Positions 11,429 through 16,285 of a stretch of DNA of 18,038 bases are shown here, piece after piece. Below the pieces are notes generated by a model. That model had not been told where the DNA came from. It ran no database searches and was given only the letters and a program-made list of their open reading frames with translations. The stretch is from assembly GCA_021808875.1 (NCBI GenBank), contig JAKBAU010000035.1, positions 1-18,038 of the forward strand. The letters are read 5' to 3'. Source of the stretch: Pseudomonadota bacterium. GTDB taxonomy: Bacteria > Pseudomonadota > Alphaproteobacteria > Micropepsales > Micropepsaceae. Position numbers and translations under genes: made by a program. The first letter of the stretch is position 1; each line of letters opens with the position of its first letter.

Positions 11429-11444
11429 ACTCCCACTCAATTGT
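11429..11444 (-). other. displaced guaA 3' end, candidate attachment site
   Basis: ACTCCCACTCAATTGT matches 14740-14755 (ACTCCCACTCGATTGT) at 15 of 16 bases in the same orientation. On the minus strand it reads ACA ATT GAG TGG GAG TGA, encoding Thr-Ile-Glu-Trp-Glu-stop, the exact end of the resident GuaA (which uses ATC and TAG). The 3' end of guaA is a recognised integration site of genomic islands. Interpretation as an att half-site is inference. Confidence 0.6.
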
Positions 11445-11759
11445 TCAAAAGACCGATAATATTCCGTTTTTATTGAGAAAACAAAACGCTCAACGCCGCT
11501 TTTGCCGTCAGCCATACCGTCAATAATTCGGACTGCTGATTTCATTGGGAAATTTCGAGCGATGGAAAATTTCTCCTATCGCCGGCTATCGGCAGCGGTC
11601 ACCATGTTGCCTCTTCGTTTGGCCCCGACCGAAATCACCTGCGGTAAGAACGGCCGAACAAAAAATACCGTCAAAACCCCGAATTTCTCAATTCGATCAG
11701 AATGTAACAAAAACCTCTGCAATCCAGTCGATCCGGATCTACGCCGTTCACCGATGGCC
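11445..11759. other. AT-richer gene-poor stretch
   Basis: Noticeably richer in A and T runs than its neighbours. Short ORFs exist on both strands (up to about 89 codons on the plus strand from 11502), but none has a ribosome site together with a recognisable motif. A short inverted repeat (GGGAAATTT / AAATTTCTC, near 11546-11575) is the only structure noticed. It probably belongs to the inserted block, as the composition change starts at the guaA-end copy. Confidence 0.45.
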
Positions 11760-12161
11760 TCAAGCTGGTGAAATCAGTTGCACTTTTGGAAAGTAGCCTG
11801 CGTACCGACGAGCGTCACGCGTTAACAAGCTCATGCCCGAGACAGCCGCGTGTGCGCCGATATAGAAATCCGGAAGCGGCGAGGTCCGAACGCCGCCGCG
11901 CCGGCGGTATTCCACGAAGGCCCGGCCGGCGACAAATCCGGCCTCATAAGGCAACGCCAGTCTTCGGAACGCGTCGACGCCGAGGCAGCGATCAAGATCG
12001 CCGATCGTAGCGAAACCGGAGGCAATCTCGGCATAGATGATGGGATTGATCGCGACTTCGTCACGATTGGCGGCATCGCTGAGCGCCGCCTCTGACCAGG
12101 CCTGCCAGGATGAGTCCTTGGTCAGGACATCAATGATGACGTTGGAGTCGACGAGAATCAT
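11760..12161 (-). CDS. vapC: PIN-domain toxin, VapC type
   Basis: 133 residues, the usual VapC size. The PIN-domain acidic residues are all there: D5 in MILVDSN, E45 in IIYAEIASGF, D98 in PLPDFYIGAHA and D116 in LLTRDARRY. They form the metal site of this RNase family; VapC toxins cut RNA, often tRNA, when released from VapB. It follows the AbrB-like antitoxin gene by 11 bp on the same strand, the standard antitoxin-first order. The RNA target cannot be read from sequence. The gene lies in the block bracketed by guaA-end repeats, where such modules often help keep islands in place. Confidence 0.9.
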   Translation of the reverse strand: MILVDSNVIIDVLTKDSSWQAWSEAALSDAANRDEVAINPIIYAEIASGFATIGDLDRCLGVDAFRRLALPYEAGFVAGRAFVEYRRRGGVRTSPLPDFYIGAHAAVSGMSLLTRDARRYAGYFPKVQLISPA

Positions 12162-12172
12162 CGTCGGTCAAC

Positions 12173-12424
12173 TCAGCCATCGTCCGCCGAGGGCCCTCGC
12201 ATTAACGCGACGATCTCATCCGTGGTCATCTTGAAGTCGCCGCGTCCGCGCAGGCCTTCGATCAGCTTTCGCCCTCTGGTCTGGCGAGCGCCGCCCGACG
12301 CCGATTTGACCAGTCGGACGACGCCGGCCTCAATCTCGAATTCGACGTCGGTTCCAGGCATTAGGCCCGCGCGTACTCGGACCTCCTGCGGGATGGTGAC
12401 CTGACCCTTTGTCGTAATCCTCAT
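12173..12424 (-). CDS. vapB: AbrB/SpoVT-type antitoxin, VapB
   Basis: 83 residues. The first 40 form a swapped-hairpin AbrB DNA-binding domain (MRITTKGQVTIPQEVRVRAG, then VEFEIEAGVVRLVK). The C-terminal part (RGRKLIEGLRGRGDFKMTTDEIVALMRG) is the segment expected to thread into the toxin's active site. ATG at 12424 is preceded by AAAAGG eight bases upstream. It is cotranscribed with the PIN toxin, and should repress its own promoter, for which a matching inverted repeat lies just upstream. Confidence 0.9.
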   Translation of the reverse strand: MRITTKGQVTIPQEVRVRAGLMPGTDVEFEIEAGVVRLVKSASGGARQTRGRKLIEGLRGRGDFKMTTDEIVALMRGPSADDG

Positions 12425-12436
12425 GGCAAAAACCTT

Positions 12437-12483
12437 TTCTTACCGCGCCGAGTAAGAATACTGCGTTCACCACTCCAATTCAA
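12437..12483 (-). promoter_or_regulatory. vapBC promoter with overlapping operator
   Basis: On the minus strand TTGAAT (12483-12478), exactly 17 bases, then TATTCT (12460-12455), close to sigma70 consensus. An inverted repeat TTCTTAC / GTAAGAA (12437-12443 and 12452-12458, 8-base centre) overlaps the -10 and reaches the start site. A VapB or VapBC complex bound there would block polymerase. Confidence 0.65.
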
Positions 12484-12602
12484 TATCGACGTTCAGTCTC
12501 TCGAGGTCTACCTGCAGCCCAAGCCGAGTCCTGACGCTAATGTCCAGTCCGCACCTGACGCCACATCGACGGTCCGGTATGTCGCGTCCTCCCCCGCACA
12601 CC

Positions 12603-14575: not shown

Positions 14576-14643
14576 AGGGAGTCAGAACTGCCTCGACTCG
14601 GCAACCAGTCCAGACCCGTCCGAGTCACTCCGCCGCACGCACC

Positions 14644-14666
14644 GCCCGGACTTTTGCCCCGGTTAC
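14644..14666. repeat. IS right terminal inverted repeat
   Basis: Ends in GTTAC at 14662-14666; the partner of 12918-12940. Confidence 0.85.
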
Positions 14667-14674
14667 CGGAAGAG
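14667..14674. repeat. target-site duplication, right copy
   Basis: CGGAAGAG, directly next to the right inverted repeat; identical to 12910-12917. Confidence 0.85.
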
Positions 14675-14694
14675 ACTCTAAACCACTGCTTTTT

Positions 14695-14729
14695 CTACGA
14701 TATTCTACGCCAACCTACGCCGGACTACG
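14695..14729. repeat. four CTACG repeats at 10-bp spacing
   Basis: CTACG at 14695, 14705, 14715 and 14725 (CGTAG on the guaA strand), with a partial CTACT at 14730. The flanking bases vary, so it is not a plain tandem repeat; only the five-base core is kept at one helical turn. It lies between the IS and the guaA stop, 11 bp from the candidate att site, as binding sites for an integrase or excisionase would. Confidence 0.6.
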
Positions 14730-14737
14730 CTACTCCC

Positions 14738-16285
14738 CTACTCCCACTCGATTGTGCCGGGAGGTTTTGAGGTGACATCGTAGACGACGCGATTGATGCC
14801 ACGGACCTCGTTGACGATGCGTGTTGCGGTCCGAGACAAGAACGCGTGGCTGAAGGGATAACTATCCGCAGTCATTCCATCCGTCGATGTCACCGCTCTC
14901 AGCGCACAGACGTAATCGTAGGTACGATCGTCACCCATCACCCCAACCGTCCTGACCGGTAACAAGACGGCAAATGCCTGCCAGATCTCGTCATAGAGAC
15001 CCGCATTGCGAATCTCCTCCAGATAAATGGTGTCGGCACGGCGCAGGATTTCAAGTTTCTCGCTGGTGATCTCTCCAGGAATGCGGATGGCGAGACCCGG
15101 GCCGGGAAAGGGGTGGCGTCCGACAAAATGGGCGGGCAGCCCAAGCTCCCGGCCAAGCGCGCGCACTTCATCCTTGAAGAGTTCGCGTAATGGTTCGACC
15201 AGTTTCATCTTCATGCGCGCGGGCAGGCCACCGACGTTATGGTGCGATTTGATCGTAACCGACGGGCCGCCAGTCGCAGAGACGCTCTCGATGACGTCAG
15301 GATAAAGCGTTCCTTGGGCCAGAAATTCCGTACCGCCGATCCTTTCCGCCTCTCCATCAAACACGTCGATAAAGGTCGAGCCTATGATTTTGCGCTTCTG
15401 CTCTGGATCGCTCACACCCTCAAGACGTTTAAGAAACAGCTCTCTGGCATCTGCGTGCACCAGTGGGATATTGTAGTGGCCACGAAACAGTGAGACCACT
15501 TCTTCTGCTTCGCCCGCTCGCATAAGGCCGGTATCCACAAAAATGCAGGTCAACTGATCGCCGATGGCTTCGTGGATGAGCACAGCGGCCACTGAGGAAT
15601 CAACGCCGCCGGATAACCCGCAGATGACGCGGTTCTTGCCAACCTGGGCCCGGATCTTGGCGATCTCGTGGGTACGGAACGCTTTCATACTCCAGTCGGC
15701 GGGGATGTTTGCCACCGCTTGTACAAAATTGCTGAGCAGCGCGGTGCCACGCGGGGTATGCACGACTTCGGGATGAAACTGCACACCGTAAAGCTTGCGT
15801 TGCTCATCGGCGATCGCCGCGAACGGCGCACCATGACTGACGGCGATGGGATGAAAGCCTCTGGGCAGAACGGTTACTTTATCGCCATGGCTCATCCAGA
15901 CCTGGTCGTTGGCGCCCAATGCCCAGACACCCTCAAACAAAGGAGACTGGCCCACGATTTCGAGATCTGCGCGTCCGAATTCGCGGGTGCCATCGCCTTC
16001 GACCTTGCCGCCAAGCTGGGCAACCATGGTCTGCTGGCCGTAGCATATACCCAGAACCGGCACGCCCATCTCAAACACCGCCTGTGGTGCACGCGGTGTT
16101 CCGGGCTCTGTCACGCTCGCCGGTCCCCCGGAGAGGATGATGGCCTTTGGCGGGCTCTCTTTCAAAGCCGCGTCGGCCTTATTGAAGGGAACGATTTCGC
16201 AGTAGACGCCACCTTCGCGCACACGCCGTGCGATCAGCTGTGTCACCTGCGAGCCGAAATCGATAACAAGAACTGGTGCCGCCAT
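14738..16285 (-). CDS. guaA: GMP synthase (glutamine-hydrolysing)
   Basis: Last step of GMP synthesis: XMP + ATP + glutamine to GMP + AMP + PPi + glutamate, in the cytosol. 515 residues, normal length. An N-terminal class I glutamine amidotransferase domain carries the nucleophile C81 in GICYGQQ and H171/E173 in FHPEV. The ATP-pyrophosphatase domain has the P-loop SGGVDSS (225-231). The C-terminal dimerisation/XMP-binding domain ends in the family's usual KPPGTIEWE. The start MAAPVLVIDFGSQ fits the family, although no good Shine-Dalgarno precedes it. It follows the TPR gene by 24 bp, so it is probably cotranscribed with it. Its 3' end seems to have served as an island insertion site, without damage to the protein. 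Confidence 0.97.
   Translation of the reverse strand: MAAPVLVIDFGSQVTQLIARRVREGGVYCEIVPFNKADAALKESPPKAIILSGGPASVTEPGTPRAPQAVFEMGVPVLGICYGQQTMVAQLGGKVEGDGTREFGRADLEIVGQSPLFEGVWALGANDQVWMSHGDKVTVLPRGFHPIAVSHGAPFAAIADEQRKLYGVQFHPEVVHTPRGTALLSNFVQAVANIPADWSMKAFRTHEIAKIRAQVGKNRVICGLSGGVDSSVAAVLIHEAIGDQLTCIFVDTGLMRAGEAEEVVSLFRGHYNIPLVHADARELFLKRLEGVSDPEQKRKIIGSTFIDVFDGEAERIGGTEFLAQGTLYPDVIESVSATGGPSVTIKSHHNVGGLPARMKMKLVEPLRELFKDEVRALGRELGLPAHFVGRHPFPGPGLAIRIPGEITSEKLEILRRADTIYLEEIRNAGLYDEIWQAFAVLLPVRTVGVMGDDRTYDYVCALRAVTSTDGMTADSYPFSHAFLSRTATRIVNEVRGINRVVYDVTSKPPGTIEWE
14740..14755 (-). other. guaA 3' end, candidate attachment site
   Basis: ACTCCCACTCGATTGT overlaps the last codons of guaA (Thr-Ile-Glu-Trp-Glu) and reaches into the stop codon TAG (14738-14740). 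It pairs with the direct copy at 11429-11444. Confidence 0.55.

What the first reader, a model, noticed from the sequence alone, without database searches (positions are those of the whole stretch)
11429..14755. Direct repeat of the guaA 3' end brackets a 3.3-kb accessory block: likely relic of a guaA-integrated genomic island
The 16-base end of guaA recurs at 11429-11444 in the same orientation with one mismatch. The change is synonymous (ATC/ATT) and the next base pair alters the stop from TAG to TGA, so both copies encode Thr-Ile-Glu-Trp-Glu-stop. By chance a 15/16 match to this one pre-chosen site somewhere in 18 kb is expected well below once (my estimate under 0.001). Between the copies lie a toxin-antitoxin pair, an IS, a truncated transporter and AT-richer DNA, but no integrase. 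The current guaA tail may have been supplied by the element, with the host's original tail left at 11429.
Basis: partly seen in the sequence, partly recalled or inferred. Interest (0 to 1): 0.72.

Follow-up and report, generated by a model that had tools for sequence, protein, structure and literature searches.

The report
Integrase-less mini-island behind guaA gene
A short foreign DNA block has inserted exactly at the end of an essential gene (guaA) of a soil-type bacterium and rebuilt that end; it has no integrase of its own but keeps the probable docking sites of one, and similar blocks sit in rows in related bacteria.

Summary
The repeat is real: a same-strand 15/16 copy of the guaA 3' end, none expected in 200 shuffles. 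The island reading holds and can be sharpened. The two copies are attachment sites of a small island without integrase, about 1.55 kb once a later IS66 insertion (8-bp target duplication) is subtracted. Both ends have relatives in an unnamed alphaproteobacterium, G206, where they bound a 3.0-kb integrase-less unit: 83% over 267 bp and 89% over 90 bp. In G206 and 12 other loci a P4-type integrase follows guaA, each time with TGACGGTA (or its complement) before it; the window's distal end holds two. So the integrase is absent but its probable binding sites remain. Correction (inferred): the crossover lay within GAGTGGGA, so ATT at the copy is the element's, the TGA there the host's, and guaA's TAG the element's. 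Closest known: CIMEs and the CR2-sul2 unit of GIsul2. No empty site was available, the distal end is strong in only 1 of 385 genomes, and decay versus satellite origin is open.

The parts
14738..16285 (-). guaA, GMP synthase; target gene, intact
   Evidence: ORF, Pfam GMP_synt_C and GATase
14742..14749 (-). core GAGTGGGA at the guaA end (attL)
   Evidence: sequence; GAGTGGGA is the core proposed for GIsul2 att sites (PMC9376610, passages)
14675..14741 (-). left element end E_L, part 1: guaA's present stop, then CGTAG four times at 10-bp spacing
   Evidence: 89% over 90 bp to G206 C3:14055-14144, the alignment running 14667-14755; role of the repeats unknown
14667..14674 (.). target duplication CGGAAGAG, copy 1
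12918..14666 (-). IS66-family insertion, 1749 bp, transposase in two overlapping frames; later insertion into E_L
   Evidence: Pfam DDE_Tnp_IS66 for 12984-13805, none for 13790-14575; similar transposases on plasmids; ends and duplication
12910..12917 (.). target duplication CGGAAGAG, copy 2
12892..12909 (-). E_L, part 2: TTGATGATCCGAGATCGA, identical in G206; similarity ends here
12726..12891 (-). C-terminal remnant of an MFS transporter, cut at the E_L border
   Evidence: Pfam MFS_1 E 2e-5, below its cut-off
12543..12657 (-). right element end E_R, part A
   Evidence: 71% over 116 bp to G206 C3 near 13500-13613 and 72% over 92 bp to the second G206 copy
12173..12424 (-). antitoxin, MazE/AbrB type; lies between the two E_R parts
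   Evidence: Pfam MazE_antitoxin, 25.2 bits against 24.7
11760..12161 (-). PIN-domain toxin (VapC-like)
   Evidence: Pfam PIN E 8e-9
11439..11683 (-). E_R, part B, ending in GAACAATT; TGACGGTA at 11673-11666 and 11522-11515, probable arm-type integrase sites
   Evidence: 83% over 267 bp and 80% over 264 bp to two G206 copies; motifs
11431..11438 (-). core GAGTGGGA at the distal end (attR)
11120..11428 (-). presumed host DNA beyond the island, with the presumed original guaA stop TGA at its edge
   Evidence: inferred from the crossover model; no homologue found in the guaA loci searched

Best explanation
The block between the two cores (11431-14749) is a small guaA-integrated island that lacks an integrase. 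A P4-type tyrosine integrase, of the family seen behind guaA in G206 and others, joined a circular element to the chromosome by one crossover within GAGTGGGA at the end of guaA. The element's left end gave guaA a new stop codon; its right end stayed at 11431-11683 with the integrase's probable arm-type sites. A deletion then joined the left end to an MFS gene, removing the left arm sites and whatever lay between, and an IS66 copy inserted into the left end. A toxin-antitoxin pair lies within the right end. In form it is a CIME: att sites at both sides, no integration or transfer genes. Shown: both cores, homologous ends, motifs, IS duplication, no detectable integrase. Inferred: the crossover, the order of events, and any mobilisation by an integrase acting from elsewhere.
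For: Repeat not expected by chance. Both ends homologous to the ends of an integrase-less unit in G206 (E 4e-76 and 7e-29). TGACGGTA or its complement lies between core and integrase in 14 of 14 rows, 13 distinct loci, background 0.056 per kb; within 450 bp of guaA in 5 of 5 flanks with the integrase and 1 of 61 without. The window's distal end has it twice. The locus's own guaA tail recurs downstream on the same strand in 8 of 66 flanks, 0 on the other strand, against 18 of 792 control 16-mers. Same-strand rows of cores in G950 and one unit behind guaA in G879. Published precedent: the GIsul2 integrase excises an int-less unit between such sites (PMC9376610, passages).
Against: No empty site for the window's own flank. 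E_R is strong in only 1 of 385 alphaproteobacterial genomes. The left end of the window has no TGACGGTA. Cores 3 and 4 of G950 are not preceded by GAACAATY. Arrays in G206 and G950 are on other contigs than guaA, and their place behind guaA is inferred from orientation and, for G206, one shared neighbour. Of 18 further loci with a recognised guaA end, 16 of them with 3 kb or more, none shows a second exact core.
Confidence: 0.87

Rival explanations
1. Not a decayed large island but a member of a family of small satellites without integrase of their own. They keep two conserved ends with arm sites, carry changing cargo, and are moved in trans by guaA-specific integrases. (A sharper form of the best explanation, differing on origin.)
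For: Ends 80-89% alike between the window and G206 while the cargo differs: MFS remnant and toxin-antitoxin pair in the window, short-chain dehydrogenase and TetR in G206. Integrase-less units of 2.5-3.6 kb in a row in G950 and one of about 5.4 kb in G879. Left-end arm motifs kept in the G206 unit.
Against: Few examples; the window copy is damaged; independent loss of the integrase in each unit, followed by accretion, is the published route to such rows (PMC5704250, passages) and explains the same pattern. No excision data.
Confidence: 0.35
2. Assembly chimera: the left part comes from the G000 organism and the right part from an alphaproteobacterium.
For: G000, given as the window's genome, holds 513-9663 at 99.96% but neither 11120-11800 nor the window's guaA; its best guaA is 58% identical.
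Against: Both halves point to similar organisms: the glucan synthase on the left has Rhizomicrobium palustre at 77% among its named relatives (120 of 7993 hits listed, most unnamed), and guaA has a Rhizomicrobium MAG at 78%. Only 2 of 24 other genomes of G000's genus hold a relative of the synthase. A mis-binned contig in G000 is simpler. The block's ends match G206 as a pair whichever organism the left flank comes from.
Confidence: 0.05
3. Chance or simple duplication of the guaA tail, not site-specific recombination.
For: Longer displaced guaA tails (60-75 bp) do occur in 5 of the 8 flanks with tail copies, so duplication or gene conversion of the guaA end happens.
Against: None in 200 shuffles. 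The window copy shares only the core, and what lies on each side of it matches element ends of G206.
Confidence: 0.03

Closest known systems
CIME, cis-mobilizable element (definition in PMC5704250, passages read)
   Same: att sites on both sides, no integration or transfer genes, stacked next to related elements at one target gene in relatives
   Different: Origin by decay of a conjugative or mobilizable element is not shown here, and cis mobilisation is untested
CR2-sul2 (ISCR2) unit inside guaA island GIsul2 (PMC9376610, passages read)
   Same: Int-less unit between att sites with core GAGTGGGA at guaA; there shown to excise by the island's integrase
   Different: No rcr2 or sul2 recognised here (no dedicated search); the window's island stands alone, with no integrase-bearing part detected
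guaA-integrated islands of Alphaproteobacteria: Mesorhizobium ICEs (PMC8627217, passages), Brucella suis IncP island (PMC5704250, table row)
   Same: Same target gene in the same class of bacteria
   Different: Those carry an integrase; whether it belongs to the G206 family was not tested

Membership tests
CIME | att sites retained at both ends | tested here: met
   cores at 14742-14749 and 11431-11438, end homology; the left end lacks the TGACGGTA sites that the G206 unit has
CIME | no integration or transfer genes | tested here: met
   ORFs and Pfam show toxin-antitoxin, IS66 and an MFS remnant; no integrase match (best E 0.41); no dedicated search for transfer genes, but no further ORF of size in the block
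CIME | derived from an ICE or IME | tested here: inconclusive
   ends resemble those of units next to an integrase-bearing island in G206; no full island with the same pair of ends was found
CIME | mobilised in cis by an accreted element | not testable with these tools
   needs an experiment
guaA-specific tyrosine-integrase island | inserted at the guaA 3' end with a core repeat | tested here: met
guaA-specific tyrosine-integrase island | own tyrosine integrase | tested here: not met
   present behind guaA in 13 distinct relative loci
CR2-sul2 (ISCR2) unit | ISCR2-type rcr transposase | not tested
   no search with an ISCR2 protein was made; the transposase family that Pfam reports in the block is IS66

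The most novel reading that the evidence does not exclude
The block belongs to a family of short integrase-less satellites at guaA of Alphaproteobacteria. They have conserved ends with TGACGGTA arm sites and a core that repairs guaA, interchangeable cargo (toxin-antitoxin pair, oxidoreductases, DNA methylase), and stack head-to-tail near one integrase-bearing island that moves them in trans, like cassettes in a row. Units in G206, G950 and G879 would be further members.
Probability: 0.35. Interest if true: 0.6.

Novelty: new member of a known kind. Interest (0 to 1): 0.4.

Why it matters
It shows how much of an integrase's footprint can survive without the enzyme, and gives a sequence handle (GAACAATY, core GAGTGGGA, TGACGGTA repeats) for integrase-less islands that searches for integrases would miss. 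If the satellite reading is right, guaA in these bacteria is a site where small gene cargos queue up and are shared between families, using another element's recombinase.

Tried and rejected
G000 as the window's genome: it holds 513-9663 only, and its best guaA is 58% identical, so its relatives were no use for an empty site; I moved to Alphaproteobacteria through guaA hits.

Viral contigs with the exact 18-mer TGACGGTATGGCTGACGG: 7 stretches, which fall into two groups of near-identical sequence around the match; no GAGTGGGARTcore, no end homology beyond 24 bp, no match to the integrase. Rejected as chance.

Plasmids: the region 11100-14800 matched 92 records; the 20 listed all match through the IS66 part. 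E_R alone gave no match.

A regular-expression search for integrases behind guaA found 4 of the 5 that tblastn later showed in the 66 flanks. Ten ORFs behind guaA from nine loci with tail copies or CGTAG repeats were scanned by Pfam; none is an integrase.

FeoB as marker of an empty site in the family of G206: no match in the 9-kb flanks of 8 genomes; a ninth, G370, ended after 203 bases. A BamB-like gene gave the synteny instead, in G453 and G462. A shared host flank behind the G950 array and in G879 or G684 was not shown.

Of 110 loci with a guaA 3' end, 44 were left out of the tail-copy count because less than 3 kb downstream was held.
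Full report
Observation. The guaA tail repeat is present as described. The degenerate pattern for T-I-E-W-E finds only the two places, with none in 200 shuffles. The block between them holds a PIN/MazE-type toxin-antitoxin pair, IS66-family sequence and an MFS piece. The IS66 copy runs 12918-14666 with an 8-bp duplication CGGAAGAG, so it is a later insertion. Without it and one duplication copy, the distance between the cores falls from 3311 to 1554 bp.

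Where the window comes from. The own-genome link is misleading. G000 contig C416 (9151 bases) matches window 513-9663 at 99.96%, but window 11120-11800 and the window's guaA were not found in G000, whose best guaA is 58% identical. The window's guaA is closest to alphaproteobacterial MAGs: L032 at 80%, and a Rhizomicrobium MAG, L035, at 78%. The cyclic glucan synthase on the left has Rhizomicrobium palustre at 77% among the named relatives in the 120 hits listed of 7993, and only 2 of 24 other genomes in G000's genus hold a relative of it. Both sides of the window fit one Rhizomicrobium-like organism, and C416 is probably mis-binned in G000. A chimera is not excluded.

Are guaA-tail copies a general feature? 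Of 110 loci with a guaA 3' end, 66 had at least 3 kb of downstream DNA. In 8 of the 66 the locus's own tail 16-mer recurs downstream on the same strand with at most 2 mismatches; no copy occurs on the other strand. Of 792 control 16-mers from elsewhere in the same guaA genes, 18 recur. The copies are of two kinds: five loci (L032, L041, L046, L081, L107) show a longer displaced guaA tail, three (L061, L093, L094) the core alone. In L032, the nearest relative, a displaced tail of about 75 bp lies behind a Phd/PIN toxin-antitoxin pair that directly follows guaA, a parallel to the window. Against this, 18 further loci with a recognised guaA end, 16 of them with 3 kb or more behind it, show no second exact core.

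The key relative. A pattern of guaA core plus two spaced CGTAG gave one match in 385 alphaproteobacterial genomes, G206:C3:14061. Window 11417-11683 aligns there at 83.1% over 267 bp to C3:16839-17102 and at 79.5% over 264 bp to C3:13815-14074; window 14667-14755 aligns at 88.9% over 90 bp to C3:14055-14144. So G206 has E_R, core, E_L, a 3.0-kb unit with a short-chain dehydrogenase and a TetR regulator, E_R, core, then other DNA. The two G206 E_R copies share 562 bp at 87.5%. The window's E_R is split: part A (12543-12657) and part B (from 11683 down) lie about 860 bp apart instead of about 200, with the toxin-antitoxin pair between. The window's E_L stops matching G206 at GAGATCGA, where the MFS piece begins. 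Searching E_R in 385 genomes gave 4 genomes at E 0.001 or better, of which only G206 is a strong match.

The enzyme. G206's guaA lies on C7 and is followed by a gene with Phage_integrase, Arm-DNA-bind_3 and Phage_int_M domains, an AlpA gene and type I restriction genes. Relatives of this integrase (66-85%; one of them, L068, a partial match of 135 residues) are in 14 rows, 13 distinct loci since L146 and L190 are one place. In each a core lies just upstream, and TGACGGTA or its complement occurs in the 297-339 bases from core to the first 60 bases of the gene, against a background of 0.056 per kb (119 in 2.14 Mb of loci held). In the 66-flank set the motif is within 450 bp of guaA in 5 of 5 loci with the integrase and 1 of 61 without. 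The window's E_R carries it twice, at the positions seen in G206; one further copy lies elsewhere in the window, at 16946 (+). G206's integrase-less unit also has it in its left end (C3:14254 and 14331); the window has no such stretch. I infer that TGACGGTA is the arm-type site of this integrase family; no binding was tested.

More rows of units. G950 has four same-strand cores on C4 (53445, 55961, 59538, 67417) and none on the other strand in 100 kb; in the 20-kb stretch with three of them 0.01 are expected. The first two E_R copies are 76.6% identical over 171 bp; cores 3 and 4 are not preceded by GAACAATY. Cargo includes an FAD monooxygenase, an NAD-epimerase-type protein and a peptidase S51 protein. 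G950's guaA and its integrase (81% to that of G206) are on C14. G879, of the same genus, has such a unit directly behind guaA: its E_R is 73% identical to both of G950's, its second core has one change, this integrase was not found in the 15.4 kb fetched, and it encodes a DNA methylase.

Do the rows lie behind guaA? In G206 and G950 the contig orientations fit. In G206 the DNA after the row holds FeoB (Pfam) and a BamB-like gene (my label from the sequence, not scanned by Pfam); the latter has a relative about 1.8 kb behind guaA in G453 and G462. This is inference, not a closed contig.

Mechanism. GAACAATY precedes the core in the window, the second G206 copy, the first two G950 copies and G879, and GAACATTT in the first G206 copy. 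After the core every element end that I examined (window, G206, G950, G879) begins with an in-frame stop. One crossover within GAGTGGGA then explains the differences between the two window copies: ATC at guaA is the host's and ATT at 11429 the element's; TAG at guaA is the element's and TGA at 11429 the host's.

Known kind. The GIsul2 study gives GAGTGGGA as core and shows an integrase excising an int-less unit between such sites (PMC9376610, passages). guaA islands are recorded for Mesorhizobium (PMC8627217, passages) and Brucella suis (PMC5704250, table row). The CIME definition (PMC5704250, passages) fits the window in form. My paper searches (listings only, except the papers named) showed no title about such alphaproteobacterial units; that is weak evidence of absence.

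Limits. No empty site for the window's own flank. Decay and satellite origins cannot be separated with these data. The roles of the CGTAG and TGACGGTA repeats are inferred from position and recurrence only.

Noticed in passing
window 513-9663; G000:C416: The whole 9151-base contig C416 of G000 equals this stretch at 99.96%, yet G000's best guaA is 58% identical to the window's: probably a mis-binned contig.
   Followed up: partly
L032:11588-12304: A Phd/PIN toxin-antitoxin pair sits directly behind guaA, followed by a degenerate duplicate of about 75 bp of the guaA 3' end.
   Followed up: partly
L041, L046, L081, L107 downstream of guaA: Displaced guaA tails of about 60 bp or more, two of them in L041, suggest units that replaced a longer piece of the guaA end.
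   Followed up: no
window 14675-14741; L059, L077, L082 behind guaA: CGTAG repeats right behind the core: four at 10-bp spacing in the window, two within 90 bp in three other flanks that lack this integrase family; role unknown.
   Followed up: partly
L188 near 19538 (G950 C4:59538); L093 and L054 behind cores: The DNA after the third G950 core looks like that after cores in two other genomes (by eye), as if a second type of element end is shared.
   Followed up: no
window 11120-11386 (-): Small ORF whose YYVYILASHRNGTLCVGV stretch recalls a truncated GIY-YIG protein (recalled resemblance; no Pfam family).
   Followed up: no
window 2476-11115 (+): Intact 2879-residue cyclic beta-1,2-glucan synthase-type protein next to the island.
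   Followed up: partly
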